Assembly: GCF_000826525.2 (NCBI RefSeq) | Contig: NZ_LN651329.1 | Coordinates: 28,004 to 92,003, forward strand | Reading direction: 5' to 3' | Length of the DNA: 64,000 nt | Source: Mobilicoccus massiliensis | GTDB lineage: Bacteria > Actinomycetota > Actinomycetes > Actinomycetales > Dermatophilaceae | In this document: positions 37,840 through 61,105 of the stretch, one piece after another | Layout: each line of letters begins with the position of its first letter | Position numbering within the stretch: position 1 is the stretch's first letter | The notes under the pieces: model-generated | Told to the model about the DNA's origin: nothing | Databases searched by the model: none | What the model saw: the letters and a program-made list of their open reading frames with translations, nothing else | Made by a program: the position numbers and the translations under genes

Positions 37840-38868
37840 TCAGCCGGCCTGCGGATCGGGGTCGGCCAGCGGCTTCCAGCCGGGAGCCGAGAGGGTGAGG
37901 AAGGCGCGGGCGACAAGCGGAGTCGCTTCCAGGCGGTCCTCGATGGCCTGGATGCGGGTCTGCAGCACGGATTCGGTGTCGTCGAGGGAGAGGTCGACCG
38001 CCGCGATGATCAGCACCTTCGACGGTCCGACGTACTCCATGTGGAGGAACGTCACCACGTCGATCTCGGGGTTGTCGTAGAGGGCCGCGAGGACCTTCTC
38101 TCGCGTGGCCGCGCTGACCTGTTGGCCGACGAGGAACGCGACGTTGCGCTGGATGAGAACGAAGGCGACGACACCGAGCAGGACGCCGACGAGGATCGAC
38201 CCGATCGCGTCGTAGATCGCGTCGCCGGTGATCTCGTGGAGAGCGAGTCCGCCCGCGGCGAGCAGGATGCCGATCAACGCGGCCGCGTCCTCGAAGAACA
38301 CGGCCCGCAGCGTCGTCTGCGACGTGTCGAGGATGTACCGCATCGGGTGCAGCCCCGCCTTATGAGCCGAAGACCGCGTCTGCCTCAGCGCCTGCGAGAA
38401 CGAGACCCCCTCGAGAACGAACGAGATGGCGAGCACGATGTAGCTCAGCAGGTAGTCCGCACCCTCGCCCTCGGCGTGCAGCTCCGAGATGCCGTGCGTG
38501 ATCGACAGGATCGAACCCGCGACGAAGAGGCCGAACGCCGCGATCATCGACCACACGTACGCGGCGCGTCCGTAGCCGAAGGGGTGGGACTCGTCGGCCG
38601 GCTTGGTCGCGCGGCGTTCGGCGATGAAGAGGAAGATCTCGTTGCCGGTGTCGGCCCAACTGTGCGAGGCCTCCGCCACCATGGACGCCGAGCCCGACAC
38701 CACGGCCGCCACCGTCTTCGCGATCGCGATGAGCGCGTTCGCCCCCAGCGCGATGAGGACGGTGAGCAGGCTGCCGGAGGACTCGCCCTTGCCCCCGCTC
38801 CCGCCGGTCGTCGTGGAAGCCGTGTCGGAGGCCGCCGCGTGCCCGCCTCGTTCCTTCGAGTTCGTCAC
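37840..38868 (-). CDS. Cation diffusion facilitator family transporter
   Basis: This is a 342-residue CDF protein (from GTG 38868), unlike the one at 28.8 kb. After a Ser/Thr/Gly-rich tail come membrane segments with SMVAEASHSWADTGNEIFLF (HxxxD site, segment 2) and FFEDAAALIGILLAAGG (DxxxD-type site, segment 5). The C-terminal domain lacks the usual His cluster. SHPFGYGRAAYVWSM marks the MMT1/FieF-like branch with Fe or Mn among possible substrates. An ATG at 38970 would add 34 Arg-rich residues. I prefer 38868, but neither has a clear ribosome site. Confidence 0.8.
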   Translation of the reverse strand: MTNSKERGGHAAASDTASTTTGGSGGKGESSGSLLTVLIALGANALIAIAKTVAAVVSGSASMVAEASHSWADTGNEIFLFIAERRATKPADESHPFGYGRAAYVWSMIAAFGLFVAGSILSITHGISELHAEGEGADYLLSYIVLAISFVLEGVSFSQALRQTRSSAHKAGLHPMRYILDTSQTTLRAVFFEDAAALIGILLAAGGLALHEITGDAIYDAIGSILVGVLLGVVAFVLIQRNVAFLVGQQVSAATREKVLAALYDNPEIDVVTFLHMEYVGPSKVLIIAAVDLSLDDTESVLQTRIQAIEDRLEATPLVARAFLTLSAPGWKPLADPDPQAG

Positions 38869-39098
38869 GGACGACGACGCTACCGCGACTCCGCGTGACC
38901 GGCGCTTCGCGGCGTGGGCGCGGACCGGCCGGGGGCTCTCGGTTCGTTCGGGCTGGGGCGTGAGGCGCATCCAGGCGCACCGCGGGGGCGGCTCGGCCGC
39001 GTTCGTGCGAAGTCCGTGCGGGGCTTGACACGGCGTGGTCCACTGGTCGTTGTTACCGGCACGTCACCGCGCGGTGAGTTCGCACCGGGGAGGTCCGT

Positions 39099-42538: not shown

Positions 42539-43942
42539 TTACCAGCCGGGAAACGGTGGGACGCCATCGGTGCGTCGCGGGAAGGCCGGCGCGGCCACCC
42601 GACTCAGCCCGGGCGCGAGAACTCGGACGCAGCGCCACCCGGTCGGGGCGACATCGGGCGTCGTCAGGTCGACGACCCACCAGGGGCGGTCTCCCCGGGC
42701 CGGGGCCGAGTCGGGGAGCGGTTCCTCCCACCGCCGCAGCCCGGAGACGAACTCGAGAGTCCTTGCGACGCTACGGGGGTCGAGACCGACCTGGAGCGAG
42801 GCCAGCGGATCGGTGCCGGCACGCAGCGCCGCGGAATCGGGGGTCGGGGCGTCACCGAGGTAGGCCCGATCGGCGCGATGGGGCAGGACGCCGGGCGGTG
42901 GCCCACCCGAGAAGCGCCCCGGATCGTCGAGGAGGGTGCGAGCGAGCGAGTGCTGCCAGAGCGCACGGGCCGAGGCCTCCGCCGGCGTCGGTGCGGCCCC
43001 GAGGGTGACGACCGGCGACTCCCGCGTCGAGAACTTCGGCATCGAAGACCCCTCCATCGAAGACCCTGCCACCGAGGCCTCCGCCGGCGTCGGTGCGGCC
43101 CCGAGTGTGACGACCGGCGACTCCCGCGTCGAGAACTTCGGCATCGAAGACCTCTCCATCGAAGACCCTGCCACCGAGGCCTCCCGCACCGACGACTCCG
43201 GCACCGAAGCCTCCCGCACCGAGGACCCAGGCAACGAACAGGCCACCGCGAGGGCGACCCGGCGGCCTCCGGAGGCGGGCAGCGAGCGGACATCGACCGT
43301 GACGCCGGGACCCTCCGGGACAGGGGCCGTCTCGATGGCCGCCGGCACCCGGCCCTCCCACCAGGTCACGAGCGCGTCCTCGCAGATCAGTGCGGCCCAC
43401 GCCGCGTCGATCGCGGCGTCGAGGCCGATTCCCGCACCGAGGCCGCTCATGTTCATCGGACCGATGGGCGGCTCGTCGGGGTGGGCGTCGAGAAAGCGCA
43501 CCGGCACCTGTGCGTACGGAACCCACCCCGCCACCGGCCCGCCGCTGTCGCCGTGCCGCCACCCGCGGCACCACCGCATCACGTCGGCGGGCCCGGCCCG
43601 CACGAACGGTGACGCCGGATCGTCGACGACCTCCGCGGCGGGCCCGTCGAGCTCCTCGACCCGCAACACCGGCGCACCCTCTGCCCGCAACGCGTCCCAC
43701 GAGGCGGAGCGGACCTCGAGCTGACCGCCGTCCTCACCGCACCACGTGCGCACGGCCGCTGCCACGCGCACCGCCGGATCCGGCCCGCCGCCGCCGACGA
43801 GCTGCGGCGCCGGCGCCCACGCGTCGACGCCTTCCCGGGGCGGCATCCGCACCTGGTCGTGCACGAACGCCTCGGGCAGCCCGAAACGGCCCGGGACGCG
43901 GTGCACCTCGAGCGGGGTCGCGAACAACGACACCTCAGGCAT
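42539..43942 (-). CDS. Degenerate YcaO-like protein of the RiPP operon
   Basis: This is a 467-residue paralogue of the YcaO half of the preceding gene. Shared blocks in order: SASWDALRAEGAPVL (about 79-93; partner HASWDELRRRGIPAL), ICEDALVTWW (about 186-195; partner VERHATMLWW), HRADRAYLGD (about 355-364; partner WRADRAYLDD), VVDLTTPDVAPTG (about 423-435; partner VVDLTTPDVASTG). Key ATP/Mg residues are lost: SPLGESIER becomes DPAVRVAAAVR, and EEVVERH is only partly kept as ICEDA. It is likely a scaffold or regulatory partner. A 34-residue tandem repeat interrupts the domain at about 256-323, and the end is proline-rich (VPPFPGW). The ATG overlaps the upstream stop by 8 bases, so translation is coupled. 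Confidence 0.75.
   Translation of the reverse strand: MPEVSLFATPLEVHRVPGRFGLPEAFVHDQVRMPPREGVDAWAPAPQLVGGGGPDPAVRVAAAVRTWCGEDGGQLEVRSASWDALRAEGAPVLRVEELDGPAAEVVDDPASPFVRAGPADVMRWCRGWRHGDSGGPVAGWVPYAQVPVRFLDAHPDEPPIGPMNMSGLGAGIGLDAAIDAAWAALICEDALVTWWEGRVPAAIETAPVPEGPGVTVDVRSLPASGGRRVALAVACSLPGSSVREASVPESSVREASVAGSSMERSSMPKFSTRESPVVTLGAAPTPAEASVAGSSMEGSSMPKFSTRESPVVTLGAAPTPAEASARALWQHSLARTLLDDPGRFSGGPPPGVLPHRADRAYLGDAPTPDSAALRAGTDPLASLQVGLDPRSVARTLEFVSGLRRWEEPLPDSAPARGDRPWWVVDLTTPDVAPTGWRCVRVLAPGLSRVAAPAFPRRTDGVPPFPGW
42972..43175. repeat. 102-bp direct repeat inside the YcaO-like gene
   Basis: Two adjacent 102-bp units (42972-43073 and 43074-43175) differ at about two bases and encode two copies of a 34-residue Ser/Pro-rich block containing SSMPKFSTRESPVVTLG. 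The near identity implies recent duplication. Confidence 0.88.
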
Positions 43943-46238
43943 GGGGCATCGGAAAGTGATTGAGCTCGTCCTCGTCGAGAAGCCGGTCGGTCCATCCGAG
44001 CCGGTGGGCCAGCTCGGGGACCCGGCCGCGACCGAGGAACGGGAAGGCCGCGGGCGCGTTGCCGATCGTGCCGGGCACGAGCACGCGCACGACGGCCATC
44101 CCCGTACTCGCCACGTCGGGGGTCGTGAGATCGACCACAACGACCTCGTAGCCGGCCGATTCGACGGCGGCCCGGTAGGCGCCCAGCGAGCGCTCCGACA
44201 GGGCCGACGTCGCCGACATCGGCCGACTCGCGGGCGGCTCCAGCAGATGCCGCATCCGCTCCGCGGCCCGCGGGTCGAGGTACACCTGCTGCTGGACCAT
44301 GAGGTCGTCGCAGTCGTGCATGTCGGCGCGGAAGTCGTCGAGGTACGCGCGGTCGGCGCGCCACGGCTTGAACGCCCGGCCGTTGAGCTCTCCGCTCGCC
44401 ATGACGCCCCAGTGCAGGCCGTCCATGCGAAGCAGGTCACGCGACCCCTCCTGCAGGGTGAGCGCCTCGGTCCACGCCTTCGCCGCCGCGACCTGCGCGT
44501 CGTGCCGCGCGGAGAACCCGATGTTGACGAGCCGGTCGACGTCGTCGTGCACCGTGGCCCCGACGACCGGTACGGGGATGTCGCAGTCGATGTGGATCAG
44601 TCCGTGCCGCTGCCGACGCGGATCGGTTCCGTCCCAGAGCTGCTCCAACTCGTCGGTCGCCACGAGACCCGGCAGCACGTGACCGCTCAGCCACCAGAGC
44701 ATCGTCGCGTGGCGCTCGACGACCTCCTCGAGCCCGCTCATCACGGCGAAGTCGAGGTCCGGTCCTGCGGCGATGCCGGCGAACGCGCAGAAGTTCGTCA
44801 ACGGCGAGCCGGCGTAGCCCGCCGCGTACCAGTTGACGTAGACGAGCGAGGCCGGCACGAGCACCTCGGTGTCACGGCTCAGCGAGCGCCCCGGAACCCA
44901 GTGCACCCGGGTCTGCCGGGTCAGGGGGACGAAGGGAAAACCGCGTGCCGCGTACTGACGGTCCGAGTACAGCACGAGCGTGTCCGGATCGAGCGCGGGG
45001 ATGCCGCGTCGTCGCAGCTCGTCCCACGAGGCGTGGCGGACGGGCAGGGTGTCGAGGATGTTCGCGCAGTAGCGCTCGATCGACTCCCCGAGCGGAGAAC
45101 GGCCCGCGAGGTCGGCGTCGCCGAAGACGGACCCCTGGCACAGCGTGTTGTTGGCCCACCTGCTCACGGCCCGGATGTCGGCGACGTCGCACTGCCGCGT
45201 GACGAGTGACGCGGGCACCGACGCATCGTGGGTGATCGTGCGGGTCCGCACGACGAGGCCCGTGAGCTCGTCGACGAGATCCTCCGGCCGGTGCACGCGG
45301 TGGCGGGTCACGGATCCGGGCATCGGCAGCACCGGGTGCTCGGTGACGACCGGATCCCCGGACTCCCAGCGGACGCGGAGGAGGACGTCGCCGGCACTCC
45401 TCGCGCCGAGCATGAGAGCGAGCAGGAGCAGACCCGGGACGTCGGCGGGCGCCGGGCCGCAGTCGCCGGTCAGGGAAGGGGTGCGCAGCGCGCGGTGGAC
45501 GCGCCGATCGTAGGCGGCGGCGCAGCGACGGCCGACGAGGTCCTCGTAGGAGGCACCCTCGCCCGGGGTGACCCGCGGTCCGGCGAGGACGACACCTCGC
45601 CCGAGCTCGACCGGCAGCCAGTCCACCCGCATGTCGTGGCACCAGCGGTCGACGTCGACGAGGTCGGGGTCGCTCGGTCCGTGGGTGAGGACGACGAGCA
45701 GCCGCCTCGTGCCGAACGCCTCGTTGACCGCCGCGCGGCCGGTCGCCGCGGAGAAGCGCACGTCCCATCCGAGCGCCTCGACCTCCGGCCGGATCGCCTC
45801 GGCCACGGCCGTGTCTCCGGCGACGAGCAGCGGCGTCGCGGGCGGCGCCAGGCGCGCGGCCACGTCCTGCACTCCGACGGCGAGCGTGCCCGGTTCGAAC
45901 GCCCCGCAGCCGACGAGCTTCTCGCGCACTCCGGCAGCGGCCCGCGCGAGGTCGGGATCGAGCGCGCCCGCCGGCGGTGCCTCGGTCTCGCGCCCTCCGG
46001 CGGCGGCCCGCGCGAGGTCGGGATCGAGCGCGCCCGCCGGCGGTGCCTCGGTCGTCCCGCTCGTCCATAGGTCGAGGAGGCGCAGCACGTCGTCGGCCCG
46101 CAACGGCAGGACATGGTGGCGCCCGTCGGGGGTGGACAGGACGCTCGCGTGCGCGTCGAGGGCGCGGACGTCGACGCGGGCGCGCGGCGGCGCGACGGCG
46201 GGGGCAGGGACGCCGGTGGGGGCGGCGGACGTGGTCAT
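43935..46238 (-). CDS. Leader-binding/YcaO fused cyclodehydratase of a RiPP cluster
   Basis: This is a 767-residue protein. The first 300 residues resemble the E1/ocin-ThiF-like partner that binds RiPP leaders (LPLRADDVLRLLDLW, TPLLVAGDTAVAEAI, RRLLVVLTHGPSD), including a 22-residue duplicated Ala-rich segment. Residues about 340-767 are a YcaO domain with the ATP-site motifs SPLGESIERY (381-390) and GLEEVVERHATMLWW (502-516), the AKAWTEALTLQEG helix (586-598), and the proline-containing C-terminus HFPMPHA. YcaO enzymes use ATP to turn Ser/Thr/Cys and a backbone amide into azolines, or to form amidines or thioamides. It should modify the peptide encoded just upstream. No SagB-type dehydrogenase or TfuA is seen, so azolines are more likely than azoles or thioamides. 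Confidence 0.85.
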   Translation of the reverse strand: MTTSAAPTGVPAPAVAPPRARVDVRALDAHASVLSTPDGRHHVLPLRADDVLRLLDLWTSGTTEAPPAGALDPDLARAAAGGRETEAPPAGALDPDLARAAAGVREKLVGCGAFEPGTLAVGVQDVAARLAPPATPLLVAGDTAVAEAIRPEVEALGWDVRFSAATGRAAVNEAFGTRRLLVVLTHGPSDPDLVDVDRWCHDMRVDWLPVELGRGVVLAGPRVTPGEGASYEDLVGRRCAAAYDRRVHRALRTPSLTGDCGPAPADVPGLLLLALMLGARSAGDVLLRVRWESGDPVVTEHPVLPMPGSVTRHRVHRPEDLVDELTGLVVRTRTITHDASVPASLVTRQCDVADIRAVSRWANNTLCQGSVFGDADLAGRSPLGESIERYCANILDTLPVRHASWDELRRRGIPALDPDTLVLYSDRQYAARGFPFVPLTRQTRVHWVPGRSLSRDTEVLVPASLVYVNWYAAGYAGSPLTNFCAFAGIAAGPDLDFAVMSGLEEVVERHATMLWWLSGHVLPGLVATDELEQLWDGTDPRRQRHGLIHIDCDIPVPVVGATVHDDVDRLVNIGFSARHDAQVAAAKAWTEALTLQEGSRDLLRMDGLHWGVMASGELNGRAFKPWRADRAYLDDFRADMHDCDDLMVQQQVYLDPRAAERMRHLLEPPASRPMSATSALSERSLGAYRAAVESAGYEVVVVDLTTPDVASTGMAVVRVLVPGTIGNAPAAFPFLGRGRVPELAHRLGWTDRLLDEDELNHFPMPHA
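45921..46052. repeat. 66-bp tandem duplication inside the YcaO fusion gene
   Basis: Two 66-bp units (from 45921 and 45987) encode the repeated segment EAPPAGALDPDLARAAAG in the N-terminal part of the protein. Only a few bases differ. Confidence 0.8.
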
Positions 46239-46270
46239 CGGTGGGGCCTTCCACGAGCGGGAGAATGGGC

Positions 46271-46309
46271 GGTGGGCTCCCGGCCGATTGCGCCGGCCGG
46301 GAGCCCACC
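46271..46309 (-). terminator. Strong hairpin between precursor and YcaO genes
   Basis: GGTGGGCTCCCGGCCG (46271-46286) and CGGCCGGGAGCCCACC (46294-46309) form a perfect 16-bp stem with a 7-base loop, 17 bases after the precursor stop and 33 bases before the YcaO start. It probably attenuates read-through or protects the precursor mRNA, so more precursor than enzyme is made. Confidence 0.75.
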
Positions 46310-46325
46310 GGGTCGACGATCACGC

Positions 46326-46436
46326 TCAGCTCCAGGAGAAGCTGGTCGCGACGTGTCCGTGGTGGTTCGAGTTCGGGGCGAGGACGGCCTGCTCGGACCG
46401 CTCCTCACGCACCTCGACCATCTGGATCGTGGGCAT
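46326..46436 (-). CDS. RiPP precursor peptide, 36 residues
   Basis: A 37-codon frame starts at ATG 46436, eight bases after a near-perfect AAGGAGG ribosome site, and ends at TGA 46326. The N-terminal part is charged (MPTIQMVEVREERSEQ, a leader-like stretch). The C-terminal part PNSNHHGHVATSFSWS has five Ser/Thr residues and three His but no Cys, which suits a YcaO-modified core with imidazole metal ligands. It overlaps the end of the exporter gene by 32 bases in another frame. The order exporter, precursor, cyclodehydratase is typical of RiPP clusters. The leader/core boundary and the protease are not known; PN or the preceding LA are possible cut sites. Confidence 0.75.
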   Translation of the reverse strand: MPTIQMVEVREERSEQAVLAPNSNHHGHVATSFSWS

Positions 46437-48291
46437 CGTGTTCACCTCCTTCCTGCTCGTCGGTCGTGGGTGTCCCCGACGCGCCGTCGTGGAGGACCGC
46501 GGCGTACCGCGGCTCCGTACGCATCAGGTCGTCGTGGGCGCCGGTGGCGGCGATGCGCCCACCGGCGAGGAAGAGGGCGCGTTCGCACCCGGCGATCGTC
46601 GTCGGGCGGTGGCTGACGACGACCGTCGTGCGACCGCGGCGTCGCCGGTCGAGGGCGGCGAGCAGGTCGGCCTCGGTGAGCGCGTCGACGTCGGCGGTCG
46701 GCTCGTCGAGGACGAGGACGACGGGGTCGGCGAGCAGCCCGCGGGCCAGCCCGAGGCGTTGGCGTTGCCCGCCCGACCAGGATCGGCCCGCCTCGGCGAC
46801 GACGGTGTCGAGCCCGTCGGGCAGTGCTCGCACGTGACCGGCGAGGCCGACGTCGCGCAGCGCCGCCCACATCGCCTCGTCGCCGTGACCGACGCCCGCG
46901 AGATCGAGGTTCTCGCGCACGGTGGTGCGAAAGACGTACGGCCGCTGCTCGACGAGGACGACCGCCGAGCGCGTCGCCTCGCGGGACACGGTCGCCAGAT
47001 CGCGTCCGTCGAGCCGGACGCACCCGGTTGCCGGGTCGATGAGCCGCGTCAGTGTGTGGACGAGCGTCGTCTTGCCGGCCCCGCTCGCGCCGACGACGGC
47101 CACGTGCTCGCCGGCGCCGACGACGGCCGAGAGATCGTGCAGCACGTCGCGTTCGGTGTCCGGATAGCGCACGGTGATGCGGTCGACCTCGAGGCGCCCC
47201 GGTCCGACGAGATCGGCGAGGGCGGCGTCGCGTCCGCCGTCGCGTCCTGTTGCGTGGGGGACGACGTCGCGTCCGACACCCTCGGCGGTGGCGTCGTCAC
47301 GGCTCGCAGGAGAGGCCGTGACGATCCCGACGATCCGGGAGGCGGCAGCCGACATCTCGCCGAGGCGCTGGATTCCGGCCGTGGCGATGACGATGCAGAC
47401 GAGTCCCGCACCGGCGAGGGCGGTCGCCGGTGGGAGATCCTGCGGGGCGAGGTCTCCGGTGGCCACGCGTGCGGTGCACCCGACGAGCACACCGATGGTG
47501 ACGAGCGCAGCGACGAACTCGGTCGCGGCCTGCTCCCCGGCGAGCCGCAGCGCGATGGCGCGCCGCGCGGACTGCACGTCGGACGTGCCCCGGCGGATCT
47601 GCTCGTGATGTCGCCCGAGCAGCCCGAGAAGAACGATCTCGCGGGCGCTGTGGCGCGCCTCGACGGCCACGGCCGACAGTTCGGAGACGGTGTGCCGCAG
47701 GCGTGCCCCCTGCCGCGCCGCCGGCACCGCGGTGAGCACCGGGACGGCGACGAGCAGGAGCTGTCCGGCAGGGACGAGCAGCCCGACGGGACCGAGCCAC
47801 CCGACGGCGACGGCCGACACGACGACCGCGACGATCGACGAGGCGACCCATTGCGCGACCGTGTGGGCGTAGAACCACTCGAGGGCCTCGGCGTCCGACA
47901 TCGCGGCCGCGGCGACCTCACCCGAGCGGCGCCGTCGGAGTCCGAAGGGGACGAGGCGGCGCAGGGCCCGGTGCAGCTCGGCGCGCACGGAGTCGATGAC
48001 GCGGTAGGCGAGCACGTGCGCAAGCCACATGTCGGCCCAGCCGAACACGCCGACGAGCATGACGGCCACGGTGAGCGCGACGATGACCGCGACGGCACGG
48101 GGATCGCCCGTCGCCACGGCGGTCGCACCGCGGGCCCCGAGCACGGCGGCGGTGACGACCGCGAGCCCGGACGCGACCTCCACTACGATGACCTGCACGA
48201 ACAGTGCGCGGTCAGCCCGCAGGTGGACACCCAGATCGACGAGCGGGCGCACGAGGGCGCCGACCGACCGGGGCGGCGCGACGAGGCTCAC
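46405..48291 (-). CDS. ABC exporter half-subunit, second of a pair
   Basis: This is a 628-residue transporter with a six-helix membrane domain (about 20-320) and an ATPase domain (about 370-600). Walker A is GASGAGKTT, the signature is WSGGQRQR (first residue W in place of L), Walker B is VLVLDEPTADVD and the switch His is in VVSHRPTT. The GTG start at 48291 overlaps the previous stop (GTGA). It pairs with the next entry as a CydDC-like heterodimer. There is no C39 peptidase domain, so it does not cleave leaders itself. Probable cargo is the modified peptide made by the same operon. Confidence 0.87.
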   Translation of the reverse strand: MSLVAPPRSVGALVRPLVDLGVHLRADRALFVQVIVVEVASGLAVVTAAVLGARGATAVATGDPRAVAVIVALTVAVMLVGVFGWADMWLAHVLAYRVIDSVRAELHRALRRLVPFGLRRRRSGEVAAAAMSDAEALEWFYAHTVAQWVASSIVAVVVSAVAVGWLGPVGLLVPAGQLLLVAVPVLTAVPAARQGARLRHTVSELSAVAVEARHSAREIVLLGLLGRHHEQIRRGTSDVQSARRAIALRLAGEQAATEFVAALVTIGVLVGCTARVATGDLAPQDLPPATALAGAGLVCIVIATAGIQRLGEMSAAASRIVGIVTASPASRDDATAEGVGRDVVPHATGRDGGRDAALADLVGPGRLEVDRITVRYPDTERDVLHDLSAVVGAGEHVAVVGASGAGKTTLVHTLTRLIDPATGCVRLDGRDLATVSREATRSAVVLVEQRPYVFRTTVRENLDLAGVGHGDEAMWAALRDVGLAGHVRALPDGLDTVVAEAGRSWSGGQRQRLGLARGLLADPVVLVLDEPTADVDALTEADLLAALDRRRRGRTTVVVSHRPTTIAGCERALFLAGGRIAATGAHDDLMRTEPRYAAVLHDGASGTPTTDEQEGGEHDAHDPDGRGA

Positions 48292-50078
48292 GCGGGCACC
48301 TCCGTCACACCGGCGAGCCGGGCGAAGCCGCCGTCGGCGCGGCGCAGGTCGGCGGCGAGGCCGGACTCGACGAGCCGCCCGTCGGCGAGGACGTGCACCC
48401 GGTCGGAGCCCCCCAGTGAGCCGAGCCGGTGGGTGACGACGAGGACGATCCGGTCGGAGCGGTGCGTGGCGAGGCGGGCGACGAGAGCGGCCTCGCTGCG
48501 CAGGTCGAGCGCCGAGGTCGCCTCGTCGAGGACGAGGACGGGCCGGTCCTGGCGCAGGGCGCGTGCGATGGCGACGCGCTGGCGCTGGCCGCCGGAGAGC
48601 AGGCCGCCGCGCTCCCCGGCCTGCGTGTGCAGGTCGAAGGTCGGGTCGTCGGTGCCGATCCCGGCGAGCCGGGCGCACACCGAGACGTCGTCGTCCCCGG
48701 CGGCGTCATCCGCCGAGACGTCGCCCGATGCGAGGTGGGCCTGCGAGTCCGACGACGCGTCGCCGAGTGCGATGTTGTCGGCGACCGTGCCGGCGAACAG
48801 CGCCGGGTCCTGGGGAACGGTGGCGACGAGGGAGAGCAGATCGGCTGCGGAGACGGGGGCGCCGTCGACGAGCACGGTCCCCTCCTGCGGCACGAGCAGG
48901 CCGGAGAGGATCGCGGCCAGCGTCGACTTGCCCGATCCGCTGATCCCGACGACGGCGTTCATACCGGACGTCAGGCGCAGGTCGACCTCGGAGAGGGCGG
49001 CGGCGTCGCCCCCCGGGTAGGTGAGGGTGAGCCCGACGCCGTCGATCCTCGCGCAGGCGCGCGGGGGCCGGGACAGCGTGTCGAGTCGCGCGGCCCCGGG
49101 TGTCCAGCAGCCGTGCGGCGACGCGGCATCGAGCACGTCGAGGATCTGCCGGCCGGAGTAGGTGCCCGCGTAGCCGGCGTGCCAGTGGTTCGCGAGGTCG
49201 CGCAGGGGGCGGACGAGCTCGGTCGAGAGCATGACGAGGGCGAAGACGACCGTCGGCGCGAGCCCGCGGCCCAGCGCCGCGGCGAGCGCGACGACCGGGA
49301 CCGCCGACAGGGCGAAGGCCGAGAGGCCGGACTCGACGAGCGAGAGGCGCAGTTGCCCGAGCGTGCGGTCGAGCAGTGAGCGGGAGGCGCCCTCGAGGGT
49401 CTCCTGTCGCCGCGCGTCGGCGCCGGCGAGGACGAGCGTCGTCATCCCCGTCATCGAGTCGAGGAACTCGGCGTGCATGCGCCCGTAGGCGTCCCAGTGG
49501 TCCGCCCCGCGAGCGGCGAGCGCGCGATCCCAGAGCCGGGGCAGGAGGGGGAGGACGAGTACGGCGGCCACGGTGACCACACCAACGAGGGGGTCGACGG
49601 CGATGAGCACCGCGCCGACGACGAGGCAGGTGACGAGCACGGTGACCTGCTGAGGAAGGTAGCGGGAGAGGTACGGATCGAGATTCTCGACCCCGTCGAC
49701 GACGAGCGCGTGGTCGGCGCCCGTCCGCCCGCGGACGTCGGCGGCGGAGCGTCGCACGAGGGCCTCGGCGAGGTCGGCCCGCAGCGTGAGCTTGACCCGC
49801 GTCATGAGTCGGGCGGCGGCGAGCTCGCGCAGCGCGACGAGGGTGGGCCGGGCAACGAGCACCGCGAGGAGACCGGCGAGCCAGGGGGCGACGCGGGCGC
49901 CGAGGTCGGCGGGGTCGCGGCCCCACGCGCCGACGATCCCGCCGAAGACCTGCGCCATCAGCAGGGCCTGGGCGACGAACGTCGCGCCGAGCAGCACACC
50001 GATCGCCGCGAGCGTCGCGGTCACGACGATCGCCCGCGGGCGGGAGCCCAGGAGCCGGAAGAGTCGGAGGTGAATCAT
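48288..50078 (-). CDS. ABC exporter half-subunit, first gene of the RiPP operon
   Basis: This is a 596-residue transporter with a six-helix domain (about 15-310) and an ATPase domain. Walker A is GISGSGKST, the signature LLSGGQRQRVAIARAL, Walker B VLVLDEATSALD, and the switch His is in VVTHRLG. All catalytic motifs are intact. CydCD-like pairing with the next gene is expected from the GTGA overlap. The ATG at 50078 is 11 bases from the Zur/Fur-type box, so transcription of exporter, precursor and both YcaO genes should be set by that operator. Confidence 0.88.
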   Translation of the reverse strand: MIHLRLFRLLGSRPRAIVVTATLAAIGVLLGATFVAQALLMAQVFGGIVGAWGRDPADLGARVAPWLAGLLAVLVARPTLVALRELAAARLMTRVKLTLRADLAEALVRRSAADVRGRTGADHALVVDGVENLDPYLSRYLPQQVTVLVTCLVVGAVLIAVDPLVGVVTVAAVLVLPLLPRLWDRALAARGADHWDAYGRMHAEFLDSMTGMTTLVLAGADARRQETLEGASRSLLDRTLGQLRLSLVESGLSAFALSAVPVVALAAALGRGLAPTVVFALVMLSTELVRPLRDLANHWHAGYAGTYSGRQILDVLDAASPHGCWTPGAARLDTLSRPPRACARIDGVGLTLTYPGGDAAALSEVDLRLTSGMNAVVGISGSGKSTLAAILSGLLVPQEGTVLVDGAPVSAADLLSLVATVPQDPALFAGTVADNIALGDASSDSQAHLASGDVSADDAAGDDDVSVCARLAGIGTDDPTFDLHTQAGERGGLLSGGQRQRVAIARALRQDRPVLVLDEATSALDLRSEAALVARLATHRSDRIVLVVTHRLGSLGGSDRVHVLADGRLVESGLAADLRRADGGFARLAGVTEVPA

Positions 50079-50089
50079 CGCGTCCTAGG

Positions 50090-50104
50090 TGATATTGATT
50101 ATCA
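50090..50104. promoter_or_regulatory. Zur/Fur-type operator between exporter and importer
   Basis: TGATATTGATTATCA is a 15-bp 7-1-7 palindrome of the Fur-superfamily type, standing in a 27-base AT-rich gap between the divergent exporter and importer genes. It matches the common TGA-AA-TGATT-TCA pattern of actinobacterial Zur sites at 12 of 15 positions and matches the box at 59466 at 12 of 15. It does not look like an IdeR iron box. Confidence 0.7.
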
Positions 50105-50105
50105 A

Positions 50106-51167
50106 GTGCAGCAGACGCTAAGCGGTGTCGCGGGCAGGGTCAACACCGGGGTCCGGGCGGCGGCGACGATGATCGTCCTGCCGATTGCTCTCGTCCTGGC
50201 CTGCCTGTATGCGATCGCCTCCGGGGCCGCCGACCTCGGCGCGGGCGAGATCTGGGCGTCCGTGGCTGCTCGGATGGGCGTCGGATCCGACCCCCTCACC
50301 GCGCGGCAGCAGGCGATCGTCTGGGAGCTGCGGATGCCACGCGTGCTCGTCGGCGCGCTCGTGGGAGCGGCGCTGTCGGTGGGGGGCGCCACCCTGCAGG
50401 CGCTCGTGCGCAACGTGCTCGCCGATCCCTACCTGCTCGGTGTCTCCTCGGGCGCCGGCCTCGGCGCGGCCGGTGTCATCGCCCTCGGTCTCGGCGCCGC
50501 GCTCGGCGGGGTGACCCTCGTCGGCGGTGCGTTCCTCGGCGCCTGCCTCGCGGTCGTGCTCCTGCTCCTGCTCACCGGGCGAAGGGGCGCCGTCGCCGTC
50601 CATCACCTCGTGCTCGCCGGGCTCGTCGTCTCGTTCTTCCTCTCGGCCGTGACGAACCTCGTCGTCTCCGTCGCCGGCGACCGCGACACCGTGCGGGCGA
50701 TCATGTTCTGGACCCTCGGCTCGCTGGCCCGCGCCGACTGGACCCACCTGCCCGTGCTTGCGCTCGTCGTGCTCGGGATGCTTGCCGCGCTCACGCTCAT
50801 CGCGCGCCGGCTCGACGCGATCTCCCTCGGCGACGACGTCGCCCGTAGCCTCGGCACGGACCCCGGGCGTCTGCGCGTCCAGGCCACCGCGATCACCGCG
50901 ATCGGGGTCGCGGCCGCTGTCGCCGTGAGCGGCGCCGTCGGGTTCGTCGGGCTCGTCGTGCCCCACCTCACCCGGAGCCTCGTCGGTGCCTCCCACCGGG
51001 TGCTGCTGCCGACGTGCGCCCTGCTGGGGGCTCTCGTCATCGTCGTCGGCGACACCCTGGCCCGCACGGTCCTCGCCCCTCGCGAACTGCCACTGGGCGT
51101 GCTCACCGCGCTCCTCGGCACGCCCCTGCTCATGGTCCTCGTCCGCCGCCAGGGCGAGCGTCCCTGA
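50106..51167 (+). CDS. FecCD-family permease of a metal-chelate importer
   Basis: This is a 353-residue multi-pass permease of the BtuC/FecCD type. It has LRMPRVLVGALVGAALSVGG, then LQALVRNVLADPYLLGVSSG, and a C-terminal GFVGLVVPHLTRSLVG with TLARTVLAPRELPLGVLTAL, the coupling-loop and dimer regions of the family. GTG 50106, right after the operator, gives an N-terminus with two Arg before segment 1 and implies a leaderless message. ATG 50169 would start directly in the hydrophobic segment and is less natural. It lies upstream of its binding protein (43 bases) and ATPase. Confidence 0.85.
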   Translation: MQQTLSGVAGRVNTGVRAAATMIVLPIALVLACLYAIASGAADLGAGEIWASVAARMGVGSDPLTARQQAIVWELRMPRVLVGALVGAALSVGGATLQALVRNVLADPYLLGVSSGAGLGAAGVIALGLGAALGGVTLVGGAFLGACLAVVLLLLLTGRRGAVAVHHLVLAGLVVSFFLSAVTNLVVSVAGDRDTVRAIMFWTLGSLARADWTHLPVLALVVLGMLAALTLIARRLDAISLGDDVARSLGTDPGRLRVQATAITAIGVAAAVAVSGAVGFVGLVVPHLTRSLVGASHRVLLPTCALLGALVIVVGDTLARTVLAPRELPLGVLTALLGTPLLMVLVRRQGERP

Positions 51168-51209
51168 CCGTCGCCCATGTCGTCGCTTCAACCACCCAAG
51201 GAGACCCCG

Positions 51210-52211
51210 ATGGCCCCCACCACCTACGCCCGGATCGGCGCACTCGCCGCGACCCTTGCCCTGACCGGCTCGCTGTGTGCGTGCGGCGCCACGCCCGTCG
51301 CCACCGAGAATGCGAGCGGCGGCACGAGTACCCCCGCCTCCGGCAACTATCCGATGACGGTCGACGACTGCGGCACGACGGTGACGGTCGAGGAGGCTCC
51401 CCGTAAGGTGCTGACGATCGGTCAGGCGGCCGTCGGGCTGCTCGACGCCGCGGGCGCCTCCGACCGGATCGTCGCCCGCTCCGGCGAGTTCGGCGCGGAA
51501 CTGCCGCCCGGACTACGCACGCCTCCCACGTCGTCGACGATCCTCGACCCCGCGGACCCCAAGGCGGAGGCGATCCTCGACTCCGGCGCGGACACGGTCG
51601 TCGGCTACGGGCTGTTCGAGGCCGAGCCGTCCGACCTGTCGAAGGCGGGGATCACCCTGCTCACCGTCCAGGGGGAATGTGGCCACGACACCGGCGACTC
51701 CGGACCTGGGCTGGGGATCGACGTCGTCCCCGCCGACGTCCGCCGTCTCGGCACGGTGTTCGGCACCTCGGAGGTCGCGGAGAAGTCCGCGGCCGGGCTC
51801 GAGGCGGAGATCGAGCGACTCACCACCCGCAAGGGCTCGGGCACGGCCGCCTGGGTCTACTACTTCGGCGCAACCGATCCCCTCTCGGCGTACGGGGGGA
51901 CGGGCATCGCCCATGACGTCCTCGCCCGCACCGGCCTGACCAACGTCTTCGCCTCGCAGAAGAAGACCTACGTCGAGACGAGCCCCGAGGCCCTGCTCGC
52001 GCAGGACCCGGACTGGATCGTCCTCAGCTATGGGGGCTACGGCGAGAGCAAGGAGGCGGCCGAGGCCAAGTTCCGCGCCGAGAAGGGCGCCGCCACCCTC
52101 TCGGCGGTGAAGAACGACCGGATCATCCTCGTTCCCAGTGACTCCAGTGCGCCGTCCCCGCGGGTCGTCGAGGCGCTGAAGGCCGTGGCGGATGCGGTGA
52201 CCGGTGCCTGA
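51210..52211 (+). CDS. Metal-chelate ABC importer substrate-binding lipoprotein
   Basis: This is a 333-residue lipoprotein with signal peptide and lipobox LCAC (about 22-25). The mature part is a class III binding fold: PRKVLTIGQAAVGLLDAAG, AILDSGADTVVGYGLFEAEP, and C-terminal LLAQDPDWIVLSYGG, as in BtuF/FecB-type proteins for chelated metals. It lacks the His-rich loop of ZnuA, so it should bind a complex rather than the naked ion. AAGGAGACCCCG precedes ATG 51210. Its stop overlaps the ATPase start by 8 bases. The substrate is inferred to be the metal complex of the RiPP made next door. Confidence 0.85.
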   Translation: MAPTTYARIGALAATLALTGSLCACGATPVATENASGGTSTPASGNYPMTVDDCGTTVTVEEAPRKVLTIGQAAVGLLDAAGASDRIVARSGEFGAELPPGLRTPPTSSTILDPADPKAEAILDSGADTVVGYGLFEAEPSDLSKAGITLLTVQGECGHDTGDSGPGLGIDVVPADVRRLGTVFGTSEVAEKSAAGLEAEIERLTTRKGSGTAAWVYYFGATDPLSAYGGTGIAHDVLARTGLTNVFASQKKTYVETSPEALLAQDPDWIVLSYGGYGESKEAAEAKFRAEKGAATLSAVKNDRIILVPSDSSAPSPRVVEALKAVADAVTGA

Positions 52212-53034
52212 GCCCGATGAGTCCGGCAAATCCGGCACGGCCGTGGCCGCCGCGACGACGCGAACCCGTGCGCCGAGCGCCCGTCTTGAGGCGATCGGCG
52301 TCACCGTGCGTCACGGCACGACGACTGCCGTGCAGCGCGCCGATCTGCGCGTCGTGGCCGGGGCGACCACGGGGCTCGTCGGTCCCAACGGCAGCGGCAA
52401 GACGAGCCTGCTGCGAGTTCTCGCCGGGCTCGCGCGACCCGACGAGGGCGTGGCCAGGCTCGATGGGATCGACCTGGGCGAGGTCCGCGATCGCGACCGC
52501 GCGCGCCGCGTCGCCTACGTGGGCCAGGTCGAGAACGGCGACGCACCGTTCACCGCCCGGCAGATCCTCACCCTCGGCCGTGCCTGTCTGCGGCGCGACT
52601 GGGAGCGCACGACCCGCGGGGACGCGCACGCCGTCGAGGTCGTCCTCGAACGGATGGGGTTGACCGGGCTCGCCGACCGCCGCCTCGATGCGATGTCGGG
52701 CGGAGAACGTCAACGGGTGCTCATCGCGCGGGCGCTCGCGCAGGGGGCCGACACGCTCGTGCTCGACGAGCCGACCAATCATCTCGACGTCGCGCACCAG
52801 CAGCACGTGCTCGGTCTGTTGCACGACGGCCCCGAGACGGTGCTCGTCGTCCTCCATGACCTCGATCTGGCGGCAGCCTTCTGCGACCGCGTCGTCATGC
52901 TCGATGCCGGTCGGATCGTGGCCGCAGGGACGCCGGGGGAGGTGCTCGACCCCGCGCGGGTCGAGCAGGTCTACGGCGTGCGGGCGCGCCGCCTCGATCT
53001 CGCGGACCGGCCGCATCTCGTCCTCGGCCGATGA
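52204..53034 (+). CDS. ABC importer ATPase
   Basis: This is a 276-residue FepC/BtuD-type ATPase. Walker A is GPNGSGKTS (about 57-65), the Q-loop is VGQVENGDAPF, the signature MSGGERQRVLIARALAQ, Walker B LVLDEPTNHLD and the switch His is in VLHDLDLAAAF. GTG 52204 overlaps the lipoprotein stop. It completes a permease-binding protein-ATPase operon of the usual order. Copy C of the palindromic repeat follows between it and the convergent pgm gene. Confidence 0.9.
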   Translation: MPEPDESGKSGTAVAAATTRTRAPSARLEAIGVTVRHGTTTAVQRADLRVVAGATTGLVGPNGSGKTSLLRVLAGLARPDEGVARLDGIDLGEVRDRDRARRVAYVGQVENGDAPFTARQILTLGRACLRRDWERTTRGDAHAVEVVLERMGLTGLADRRLDAMSGGERQRVLIARALAQGADTLVLDEPTNHLDVAHQQHVLGLLHDGPETVLVVLHDLDLAAAFCDRVVMLDAGRIVAAGTPGEVLDPARVEQVYGVRARRLDLADRPHLVLGR

Positions 53035-56308: not shown

Positions 56309-59417
<3,109 letters not shown>

Positions 59418-59465
59418 GGGCCCCACGGTGCCATGACGGAGGGCGCGACCGGGCGGGCGTCTAGA

Positions 59466-59480
59466 TGAGAAGGATTATCA
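59466..59480. promoter_or_regulatory. Zur-type operator between COG0523 and aztD-like genes
   Basis: TGAGAAGGATTATCA is a 15-bp imperfect palindrome 15 bases before the AztD-like ATG and 48 bases from the divergent COG0523 start. It shares TGA-A--GATTATCA with the box at 50090 and fits actinobacterial Zur sites at 12 of 15 positions. Confidence 0.65.
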
Positions 59481-59495
59481 CGTACGATCGCGACC

Positions 59496-60941
59496 ATGAT
59501 TGGAATGATTCTCGACAAGAAGTCTCGCTCCCGCACGCTCGCGGCCCTCTCGGTCCTCGCGCTCACGTCGACCGCCGCCTGCGGCGGTTCCCCCACGGCA
59601 CCCGCGCGCCAGGCGCCCACCGCCGTGCCGGCCTCCACGGGCTCGGCGGCCGAACAGGGTCCGGTGGCCGACTCGGATGCGGGTGGGAACGAGAAGGAGG
59701 TGGCAACCGTGAAGCCGCGGCTGCTCATGTCCCACGCCGAAGGCCTCACGCTGCTCGATGCGGACTCCGGAGTCGTCGTCGCGAACAAGAAGCACCCTGC
59801 GTTCCTGCGCCTCGCCAACGCCGGCGACGGCCGGCACGTCATGGTGGCCGACGGCGACACGTTCCGGGTGTACGACACCGGCATCCAGGCCCAGAAGCAC
59901 GGCGACCACTACCACAACTACGAATACATCCCGGGTCTCACCGCCAAGACGTACGCGATGCCCCACGCCGGGCACGTCGTCCTTCATCACGGCCGCACGG
60001 TGCTCTTCGCCGACGGCACCGGCGAGATCAAGGCCCTCGACTCGACGAAGATCGCGGGCGCCAAGCCCCAGATCACCGAGTACAAGACCGACACCCCGCA
60101 CCACGGCGTCGCGGTTGAGCTCGCCGACGACACCCTCGTGCGCACCGAGGGGACCGAGGACGAACGCCACACGATCAAGGCCATCAAGGACGGCAAGACC
60201 ACCGCCGAGACGACCGACTGCCCCGGCGTGCACGGCGAGGCCGTCGCCGAGCCCACGGCCAAGGGCGACGTGCTGGCCTTCGGCTGCGAGAACGGCCCGG
60301 TCGTCTACCGCGACGGCGCGTTCCACAAGGTGCCGGTCAAGGACGCGTACTCACGCAGCGGCAACCTCTTCGGGCACGAGGAGAGCCCGATCGTCCTCGG
60401 CGACTACAAGATCGACAAGGACGCGAAGCCGGTCGAGCGGCCGACGCGCATCTCGCTCATCGACACCCGCACCGACACCCTCCGGCTCGTCGACCTGAAG
60501 TCGCCGTACTGGTTCCGCTCGTTCGCGCGCGGCCCGCAGGGGGAGGGGCTCGTGCTCACCTACGACGGCAAGCTGCACGTGATCGACGTCGACTCCGGAA
60601 AGCAGACCGCCGCGATCGATGTCATCGAGCCCTGGCAGGAGAAGGAGGACTGGCAGGAGCCGGGACCGGCCGTCGAAGTCGCCGGTTCCAAGGCCTACGT
60701 CACCGACGCGGAGAACAAGAAGATGTCGGTCGTTGACCTCGCGACCCGAAAGGTCGTCACGACCTACGACCTGCCGGCCGCGCCCGTCGAGATCGCCGTC
60801 ACCACCGGAAAGGCCGAGGTGCCCGCCGACGCGCACGAGGGCCACGACCACACCGAGGGTCACGACCACACTGAGGGTCACGACCACACTGAAGGTCACG
60901 ACCACACTGAGGGCCACGATCACGCCGGTCACGAACACTGA
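59496..60941 (+). CDS. aztD: AztD-like periplasmic zinc metallochaperone lipoprotein
   Basis: This is a 481-residue lipoprotein (signal with lipobox TAACG near 26-30). The body (about 75-440) is built of repeated beta-propeller blades (LTLLDADSGVVVANK, RVYDTGIQ, HVIDVDSGKQTAAID) with clustered His such as HGDHYHNYEYIPG and MPHAGHVVLHHGR, as in AztD chaperones that hand zinc to a binding protein. The C-terminal tail is a tandem EGHDHT array, a mobile zinc-collecting tail; in typical AztD the His-rich stretch is near the N-terminus. The ATG at 59496 is used; ATG 59505 is equally possible. No aztABC genes are next to it. Confidence 0.82.
   Translation: MIGMILDKKSRSRTLAALSVLALTSTAACGGSPTAPARQAPTAVPASTGSAAEQGPVADSDAGGNEKEVATVKPRLLMSHAEGLTLLDADSGVVVANKKHPAFLRLANAGDGRHVMVADGDTFRVYDTGIQAQKHGDHYHNYEYIPGLTAKTYAMPHAGHVVLHHGRTVLFADGTGEIKALDSTKIAGAKPQITEYKTDTPHHGVAVELADDTLVRTEGTEDERHTIKAIKDGKTTAETTDCPGVHGEAVAEPTAKGDVLAFGCENGPVVYRDGAFHKVPVKDAYSRSGNLFGHEESPIVLGDYKIDKDAKPVERPTRISLIDTRTDTLRLVDLKSPYWFRSFARGPQGEGLVLTYDGKLHVIDVDSGKQTAAIDVIEPWQEKEDWQEPGPAVEVAGSKAYVTDAENKKMSVVDLATRKVVTTYDLPAAPVEIAVTTGKAEVPADAHEGHDHTEGHDHTEGHDHTEGHDHTEGHDHAGHEH
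60837..60926. repeat. 18-bp tandem repeats encoding the His-rich tail
   Basis: Five consecutive 18-bp units (GAGGGTCACGACCACACT and variants) encode EGHDHT, EGHDHT, EGHDHT, EGHDHT and EGHDHA at the C-terminus of the AztD-like protein. Confidence 0.85.
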
Positions 60942-60976
60942 GAGCCGGCCGCGCCACGAGGACCACGGCCACCGAC

Positions 60977-61031
60977 CGCTCGAACAGGCACTTTCATTCG
61001 GTTCGAGAGGGTGAAACCGCCTGTTCGAGCG
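60977..61031. repeat. Inverted repeat downstream of the aztD-like gene
   Basis: CGCTCGAACAGGC (60977-60989) and GCCTGTTCGAGCG (61019-61031) are 13-bp exact arms with a 29-base loop that has partial inner pairing. A terminator is the likely role. It lies between the gene and the insertion element. Confidence 0.6.
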
Positions 61032-61105
61032 TGAGGGGGGCCGATCGCGTCGTCGTCCTCCTCGGCGTTCCTCGGCACGCCTCGGTCCTCCTCGGTCCTC
61101 CTGGG

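What the first reader, a model, noticed from the sequence alone, without database searches (positions are those of the whole stretch)
42539..53034. Putative Zur-controlled RiPP metallophore system: synthesis, export and re-uptake from one divergent operator
Seen: a minus-strand operon of two ABC exporter halves, a 36-residue peptide gene, a leader-binding/YcaO fusion and a degenerate YcaO, divergent from a FecCD permease, chelate-type binding lipoprotein and ATPase, with a Zur/Fur-type palindrome in the 27-bp gap. Known: YcaO proteins modify RiPP precursors; FecCD systems import metal chelates; Zur represses zinc-acquisition genes, including the non-ribosomal coelibactin cluster in Streptomyces. 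Inferred: the peptide, with His-His-Gly-His and Ser/Thr in its core, is an azoline-bearing zinc chelator exported and recaptured as its complex. I do not recognise a described system of this kind.
Basis: partly seen in the sequence, partly recalled or inferred. Interest (0 to 1): 0.95.

Follow-up and report, generated by a model that had tools for sequence, protein, structure and literature searches.

The report
Zur-controlled peptide zincophore system
A gene cluster shared by scattered actinobacteria encodes a short histidine-containing peptide, enzymes predicted to modify it, and two transport systems likely to export it and bring it back loaded with zinc, behind a DNA site that matches the binding site of the zinc regulator Zur, which would make it a gene-encoded, enzyme-modified zinc scavenger.

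Summary
The window encodes a divergent cluster: FecCD permease, lipoprotein and ATPase on one strand; two ABC exporter halves, a 36-residue peptide, a fused leader-binding/YcaO enzyme and a second, decayed YcaO on the other, with a 15-bp palindrome at the head. Of 18 close loci read, 12 share the full gene order and 18 encode a precursor with HxH and FxW. The published Streptomyces Zur box fits the head in 14 of 18. In 13 other genomes searched (11 with matches), the same pattern has 31 further places; 13 are at znuA, azt, CobW or alternative ribosomal-protein genes. DtxR-type boxes occur elsewhere, some at iron genes, not at the 13 heads tested. The home genome has one Fur-family gene, beside a zinc-type permease. 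YcaO1 matches LynD/TruD/MusD, so azoline formation is likely. I read it as a Zur-repressed peptide zincophore, exported and recaptured. Shown: genes, conservation, operator match. Inferred: modification, export, zinc binding, recapture. Ten searches of an open-access library listed no description of it. New variant of a known kind; no chemistry or metal-binding data exist.

The parts
42539..43942 (-). YcaO2: second, decayed YcaO; first two Glu motifs lost, C-terminus PFPGW kept; carries an in-frame 102-bp tandem repeat
43935..46238 (-). YcaO1: fused leader-binding/YcaO cyclodehydratase, relative of LynD/TruD/MusD
46326..46436 (-). precursor peptide, 36 aa; core APNSNHHGHVATSFSWS (core boundary inferred)
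46405..48291 (-). ABC exporter half B (CydC-like)
48288..50078 (-). ABC exporter half A (CydD-like)
50090..50104 (.). Zur-type operator TGATATTGATTATCA, starting 11 bp past the -10 of the predicted exporter-arm promoter
50115..50143 (-). predicted promoter of the exporter/biosynthesis arm: -35 TTGACC (50143-50138), 17 bp, -10 TAGCGT (50120-50115)
   Evidence: the stricter scan reported none
50106..51167 (+). FecCD-type permease; start uncertain, GTG 50106 or ATG 50169
51177..52211 (+). chelate-type substrate-binding lipoprotein (Peripla_BP_2), invariant ECGHD segment in 7 of 7 aligned
52204..53034 (+). FecE-type ATPase of the importer

Best explanation
This divergent gene cluster, headed by a site that matches the Zur box, encodes a short conserved His-containing peptide, a cyclodehydratase predicted to put azoline rings into it, a two-part ABC pump likely to export it, and an importer likely to bring it back with bound zinc. 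Likely order of events: when zinc is scarce, Zur leaves the operator, which lies just past the -10 of the predicted exporter/biosynthesis promoter, and both arms are transcribed. The fused YcaO enzyme would bind the leader and cyclise Ser/Thr of the core in an ATP-dependent way; with no dehydrogenase among the cluster proteins the rings would stay azolines. The decayed YcaO would act as a non-catalytic partner. The product would leave through the CydDC-like pair, bind zinc through HxH imidazoles and perhaps a ring nitrogen, be caught by the lipoprotein and return through FecCD/FecE. Shown: genes, order, conservation, operator match, company of the operator in other genomes. Inferred: regulation by Zur itself, chemistry, export, metal, recapture. 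The step that removes the leader is unknown.
For: Same gene order FecE-SBP-FecCD / ABC-ABC-peptide-YcaO1-YcaO2 in 12 of the 18 close loci. Precursor in 18 of 18, HxH and FxW in each; in the 10 LAPN-type precursors compared, the core is more alike than the leader, 0.75 against 0.41 mean identity. Published Zur box (PMC5472717, passages): 9 or more of its 11 fixed positions at 14 of 18 heads; in 9 of these the head holds the best place of the whole locus with no equal elsewhere. Same pattern at znuA, azt, CobW and L28/L33/L36 paralogue genes: 13 of 31 other places in 13 genomes searched. One Fur-family gene in the home genome, beside an ABC-3 permease gene. Window 59466: related site between a CobW and an AztD-like gene. 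DtxR-type boxes of the home genome: 2 of 4 places are at feoAB and at an Fe-siderophore-type binding protein; best match in 13 heads only 7-12 of 19. YcaO1 aligns with TruD, LynD and MusD in its YcaO part and C-terminus, more weakly in the N-terminal part, and keeps three Glu motifs in 8 of 8 aligned.
Against: No good head site in 4 of 18 loci (L024, L071 and L097 at 8 of 11; L072 at 9 of 11 but in a 1.9-kb gap with 14 equal or better places outside). In L069, L070, L074, L075 and L098 the head site (9 of 11) has 3 to 6 equal or better places elsewhere in the locus, and in L069 and L070 a better one. 18 of 31 other operator-like places are not at clear zinc genes; in the home genome 4 of 6 places of the pattern are not. 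No protease is among the eight cluster proteins. Ser or Thr between HxH and FxW is common to the 16 precursors compared, but no single ring site is fixed. The binding protein resembles heme, B12 and siderophore binders alike (model of mean pLDDT 66), so the ligand is open. HxH peptides can also bind copper or nickel. The cluster is sparse, not a general zinc gene. No binding or expression data exist.
Confidence: 0.62

Rival explanations
1. A Zur-controlled metallophore of the same design whose physiological metal is not zinc alone, for example copper, nickel or cobalt.
For: His-rich motifs bind Cu(II) and Ni(II) well (general knowledge). Known heterocycle-bearing peptide metallophores (methanobactin, captophorins) are copper-linked (PMC13097082, abstract and passages).
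Against: The operator keeps company with zinc genes. I noticed no copper gene beside the cluster but did not search for one.
Confidence: 0.13
2. An antibacterial azoline peptide made under zinc starvation, with the importer serving a separate purpose.
For: Most known azole peptides with fused cyclodehydratases are toxins or antibiotics (general knowledge). ABC exporters are common in such clusters (PMC4603692, passages, for cytolysins).
Against: The core is the better conserved part in the 10 precursors compared; the importer is present in 18 of 18 loci as FecCD and ATPase, with a binding-protein match in 15.
Confidence: 0.1
3. An iron or heme system under a Fur- or DtxR-type regulator.
For: FecCD/Peripla_BP_2 systems usually carry siderophores, heme or B12.
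Against: One Fur-family gene only in the home genome, beside a zinc-type permease; no DtxR-type box at 13 heads tested, while such boxes were found in 4 of 7 genomes, some at iron genes.
Confidence: 0.06
4. The peptide stays inside the cell or envelope as a zinc carrier or cofactor, and the ABC pair is an importer of the exporter fold, as in IrtAB or YbtPQ (recalled).
For: No protease family among the cluster proteins and no C39 peptidase domain on the ABC pair.
Against: Pairing with FecCD and ATPase genes in 18 of 18 loci makes a second importer unneeded; the best NCBIfam names of the pair are the CydDC exporters, below cut-off.
Confidence: 0.09

Closest known systems
Cyanobactin-type fused cyclodehydratases TruD, LynD, MusD (TOMM/azol(in)e RiPPs)
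   Same: Fused leader-binding and YcaO parts, conserved Glu motifs, C-terminus ending near a PxP
   Different: No protease/macrocyclase or dehydrogenase among the cluster proteins; single short conserved core; importer and Zur-type operator; decayed second YcaO in 12 of 18 loci
Coelibactin, Streptomyces coelicolor (PMC5472717, passages; PMC3430247, search listing)
   Same: Zincophore genes under Zur in an actinobacterium
   Different: Predicted non-ribosomal product, not made by ribosome and YcaO
Methanobactin and captophorins/bufferins (PMC13097082, abstract and passages)
   Same: Ribosomal, enzyme-modified peptide metallophores with heterocycles
   Different: MNIO enzymes, Cys-derived rings, copper; captophorins are proposed for copper sequestration, not zinc acquisition
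Opine zincophores such as staphylopine (PMC7438024, search listing)
   Same: Small zinc scavenger; export and re-import recalled
   Different: Opine made by different enzymes
Protein zincophores: Aspf2 of Aspergillus fumigatus (PMC9780748, search listing) and ZepA of Anabaena (PMC10957091, search listing)
   Same: Gene-encoded extracellular proteins that serve zinc uptake; ZepA is raised in a zur mutant
   Different: Proteins, not short YcaO-modified peptides
ZnuABC/AztABCD zinc uptake
   Same: Shares the operator pattern in related genomes
   Different: Takes up zinc with ZnuA-type binding proteins, no peptide

Membership tests
TOMM / linear azol(in)e-containing peptide (RiPP) | YcaO cyclodehydratase with leader-binding part | tested here: met
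   TIGR03604 over cut-off; TruD/LynD/MusD alignment
TOMM / linear azol(in)e-containing peptide (RiPP) | short precursor with Cys/Ser/Thr in the core near the enzyme gene | tested here: met
   precursor in 18 of 18 loci; Ser/Thr/Cys counted in 16 of 16
TOMM / linear azol(in)e-containing peptide (RiPP) | azolines or azoles in the product | not testable with these tools
   needs mass spectrometry
Zur regulon | published Zur box at the promoter | tested here: met
   10 of 11 fixed positions in the window; 9 or more at 14 of 18 heads
Zur regulon | same motif at known zinc genes of related genomes | tested here: met
   13 of 31 other places
Zur regulon | Zur binding and zinc-dependent repression | not testable with these tools
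   needs gel shift and transcript data
Metallophore system (synthesis, export, recapture) | biosynthesis, exporter-type pump and chelate-type importer encoded together | tested here: met
Metallophore system (synthesis, export, recapture) | product binds the metal and the importer takes up the complex | not testable with these tools
   needs binding and uptake assays
Methanobactin / captophorin (MNIO) class | MNIO (DUF692) modifying enzyme in the cluster | tested here: not met
   no such domain among the eight cluster proteins
DtxR/IdeR iron regulon | DtxR box at the promoter | tested here: not met
   best match 7-12 of 19 in 13 heads (consensus recalled)
CydDC exporters | NCBIfam cut-off for CydD/CydC | tested here: not met
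   292 of 435 and 264.7 of 329.05 bits: relatives, not members
F420-0 ABC transporter (NCBIfam) | curated cut-offs of TIGR03868/03869/03873 | tested here: not met
   108.2, 265.3 and 248.1 bits, each below cut-off

The most novel reading that the evidence does not exclude
This is the first family of RiPP zincophores: a YcaO-made azoline peptide with the core (A)P-...-HxH-...-FxW, made and recaptured under Zur control, carried by scattered actinobacteria in at least three gene arrangements, with a decayed YcaO kept as a structural partner in one of them and a wider circle of YcaO clusters beside FecCD importers still to be read.
Probability: 0.5. Interest if true: 0.92.

Novelty: new variant of a known kind. 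Interest (0 to 1): 0.82.

Why it matters
The small-molecule zincophores I know of are opines or non-ribosomal products (recalled, and the listing), gene-encoded zincophores are whole proteins, and modified-peptide metallophores are tied to copper. A short, enzyme-modified, gene-encoded zinc scavenger would join these lines, give YcaO chemistry a nutritional role, and offer a peptide scaffold for zinc chelation that is easy to vary. The cluster makes sharp tests possible: one short core, one operator and a dedicated binding protein. It also gives a sequence rule (HxH...FxW peptide beside a fused YcaO and FecCD) for finding more.

Tried and rejected
Iron reading: looked for DtxR-type boxes at 13 heads and found none, while they occur elsewhere, in the home genome at feoAB and a siderophore-type binding protein in 2 of 4 places. 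F420-0 transport: NCBIfam names of the importer are below cut-off. True gene duplication: the second copy lies in a perfect palindrome with 36,995-bp arms and no mismatch, so fold-back of the assembly is likelier. A strict promoter scan found nothing at the head; a looser search found a shared TTGAC-17-TANNNT layout in 6 of 14 heads with the site 11-12 bp past the -10, and not in the other 8. The recalled Zur consensus TGAAAATGATTTTCA gave 7 places in the home genome; apart from the two in the window none is at a zinc gene by reading. Of the 6 home-genome places, four (L006, L007, L008, L010) are not at zinc genes. The distant loci L077-L083 gave no convincing precursor and are left out of the counts; two of them (L077, L079) showed no importer. 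L023 and L025 were dropped as truncated. Matches not fetched: 9 of 19 non-own genomes, distant ones, and G861 and G900. The structure model of the binding protein is mediocre (mean pLDDT 66) and names only a fold class. In one search two rows are the other strand of one place, so 27 rows are 25 places.

Papers: seen as passages PMC5472717, PMC6711530, PMC12710340, PMC13174530, PMC12452194, PMC4603692, PMC13097082 (also abstract and outline); PMC6511847 searched, no occurrence of the terms; others seen as search listing with the start of the abstract. Statements that no description was found rest, an open-access library only, with capped listings.
Full report
WHAT IS THERE. Minus strand, in order of transcription: two ABC exporter halves, a 36-residue peptide gene, a fused YcaO (YcaO1) and a second YcaO (YcaO2). 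Plus strand: FecCD permease, Peripla_BP_2 lipoprotein, ATPase. A palindrome TGATATTGATTATCA lies between the arms (50090-50104). Up to three mismatches give three rows at two places in the window against 0.02 expected in shuffles. That the host is an actinobacterium is inferred from its relatives.

CONSERVATION. A protein search with YcaO1 gave 107 relatives among 7,994 scored candidates. Eight named loci came from genome contigs; six reach far enough to show the neighbourhood (Aeromicrobium, Actinomyces gerencseriae, two Microbacterium, Oerskovia, Cellulosimicrobium), two are cut off by contig ends. Whole-genome searches found a match at E 1e-60 in 7 of 396 genomes of the order and 20 of 394 of the class, own genome included, and at E 1e-100 in 5 of 221 and 1 of 47 of two families, their centre genomes included: the cluster is scattered. 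I fetched all 6 non-own matches of the order, 10 of 19 of the class (the rest are distant matches) and 2 more of the first family. Eighteen loci have the close, fused YcaO1: the window, L018-L022, L024, L068-L076, L097, L098. Twelve share the full order with YcaO2 (window, L018-L022, L024, L068-L070, L097, L098). L071 and L072 place YcaO1 before the pump genes, L073-L075 keep the divergent order, L076 has the genes on one strand; in these six a second YcaO was not found. FecCD and ATPase were found in 18 of 18, the binding protein by similarity in 15 of 18; in L073-L075 it was not matched, and L075 has a lipoprotein gene without similarity in that place. Seven more distant loci (L077-L083) are not counted.

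THE PEPTIDE. A precursor was found in 18 of 18 loci. In the 16 aligned, HxH, FxW near the end and Ser, Thr or Cys between them are in 16 of 16; the two added later (L097, L098) read LAPNSNHHGHVATAFSWA and LAPNSNHHGHVSTAFSWA. Twelve peptides from the protein database have the core VLAPNSNHHGHVAT(A/S)FSW; two of them are the same as in L019 and L097. Among ten LAPN-type precursors the core is more alike than the leader (0.75 against 0.41). Two precursors (L071, L072) carry Cys between two His residues.

THE ENZYMES. YcaO1 aligns with TruD, LynD and MusD, strongly in the YcaO part and the C-terminus, weakly in the N-terminal part. The motifs GE(S/A)xERYC, EE(V/I)(V/I)ER and EAxxLQ(E/D)G are present in 8 of 8 YcaO1 aligned. 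In YcaO2 the first two are lost in 10 of 10 aligned and the Glu of the third is kept in 2 of 10 (L068, L069), while the C-terminal PGW is kept in 10 of 10 (L097 and L098 were not in this alignment). That these Glu residues hold ATP and magnesium is recalled knowledge. No dehydrogenase or protease family was hit in the eight cluster proteins; the flanks were not searched for one.

THE SWITCH. The published S. coelicolor Zur box is tGaNNatSatNNtCa (PMC5472717, passages). I scored its 11 fixed positions over whole loci. The head holds the best place with no equal elsewhere in 9 of 18: the window, L018-L022, L068 and L076 at 10 of 11 and L073 at 9 of 11. L069, L070, L074, L075 and L098 have a 9-of-11 head site with 3 to 6 equal or better places elsewhere; in L069 and L070 a place of 10 lies outside the head. 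L024, L071 and L097 reach only 8, and L072 reaches 9 in a 1.9-kb gap with 14 equal or better places outside, which I do not count. That is 14 of 18. In L075 and L076 the site could lie inside the pump gene if its earliest start is used. In 6 of 14 heads searched (window, L018, L019, L020, L022, L098) a TTGAC-17-TANNNT promoter of the pump arm is followed by the site 11-12 bp past the -10, a place that suits repression; the other 8 lack this layout.

THE COMPANY OF THE SWITCH. TGAGAATGATTATCA with up to 2 mismatches gave 16 places in 6 genomes, 5 with a match, and 25 places in 7 more, 6 with a match; the reversed control pattern gave 0 and 1. Ten places are cluster heads. Of the 31 others, 13 are at clear zinc genes, in six genomes: znuA-type binding proteins (L033, L034, L035, L102), AztB-type permease and AztD-type chaperone genes (L038, L040, L105), CobW GTPases with L36, L28 or L33 paralogues (L028, L041, L101, L103, L117), and CobW beside a FecCD gene (L115). 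Ten of the 13 rest on family scans, L038 on 83 percent identity to the L040 protein, L041 and L117 on reading with an L36 gene found. Two more are suggestive: a class I aldolase gene (L039) and an anchored-repeat surface-protein gene (L032). The other 16 are unassigned or suggestive only (FecCD L104, pumps L106 and L108, a condensation domain L111). In the home genome the single Fur-family gene lies beside an ABC-3 permease gene, and the other good site in the window (59466) lies between CobW and AztD-like genes; four further places of the pattern in that genome are not at zinc genes. DtxR-type boxes (recalled consensus) were found in 4 of 7 genomes; in the home genome 2 of 4 places are at feoAB and at an Fe-siderophore-type binding protein, names below NCBIfam cut-off. 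The 13 heads tested have none.

READING. These results support a Zur-controlled peptide zincophore. The gene content is that of a metallophore system; the switch names zinc; the peptide's fixed part is its likely ligand set. The chemistry, the metal, the direction of the pump and the recapture are inference. The binding protein is of the class that carries siderophores, heme and B12.

COMPARISON AND NOVELTY. It works like coelibactin or the opine zincophores in purpose, like cyanobactin enzymes in chemistry, and like methanobactin in being a modified ribosomal peptide. Whole-protein zincophores such as Aspf2 and the Zur-linked exoprotein ZepA are also gene-encoded (search listing), so the claim is for a short modified peptide, not for any gene-encoded zincophore. 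A 2015 survey of YcaO clusters has no occurrence of siderophore, iron, zinc or FecCD in its main text (PMC4603692). Ten literature searches (some listings capped) showed no description of this system; most subscription papers are not held.

Noticed in passing
window 1-45987 (contig G000:C20:1-73990): The first 73,990 bases of the contig are a perfect gapless palindrome (36,995-bp arms, no mismatch, axis between window 8992 and 8993), probably a fold-back of the assembly; it duplicates YcaO2 and part of YcaO1.
   Followed up: yes
window 58362-62516: CobW-type GTPase and AztD-like zinc chaperone diverge from a Zur-like site at 59466; a transposase-like gene (61239-62516, by reading) follows AztD.
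   Followed up: partly
window 42970-43184 and 45920-46053: Tandem repeats of 102 and 66 bp inside both YcaO genes, 97-98 percent matches, as if recent.
   Followed up: no
relative genome G400:C34:10364-47342 (L106, L109, L117, L113, L115, L120): Six Zur-like sites within 37 kb around the peptide cluster, with CobW, L36, class I aldolase, FecCD, a pump and a solute-binding-like gene: looks like a zinc island.
   Followed up: partly
L078, L080, L081, L082, L083: More distant clusters with FecCD importers: two YcaO genes and a separate leader-binding-like protein in L078, L080, L081, L082, one YcaO in L083; no precursor found; Zur-like places of 10 or more only in L080 and L083.
   Followed up: partly
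L073:278, L081:12319, L028:2049, L041:1653: A His-rich repeat protein (HGDHVDYLHDGHxH type) lies near YcaO clusters in two loci and near CobW/L36 Zur-like sites in two others; possible zinc store.
   Followed up: no
L039, L117: Zur-like sites near class I fructose-bisphosphate aldolase genes, perhaps a zinc-sparing swap for the zinc-dependent class II enzyme (recalled).
   Followed up: no
window 37840-38970: By reading, a cation diffusion facilitator gene a few kilobases from the cluster; not checked against a family library.
   Followed up: no
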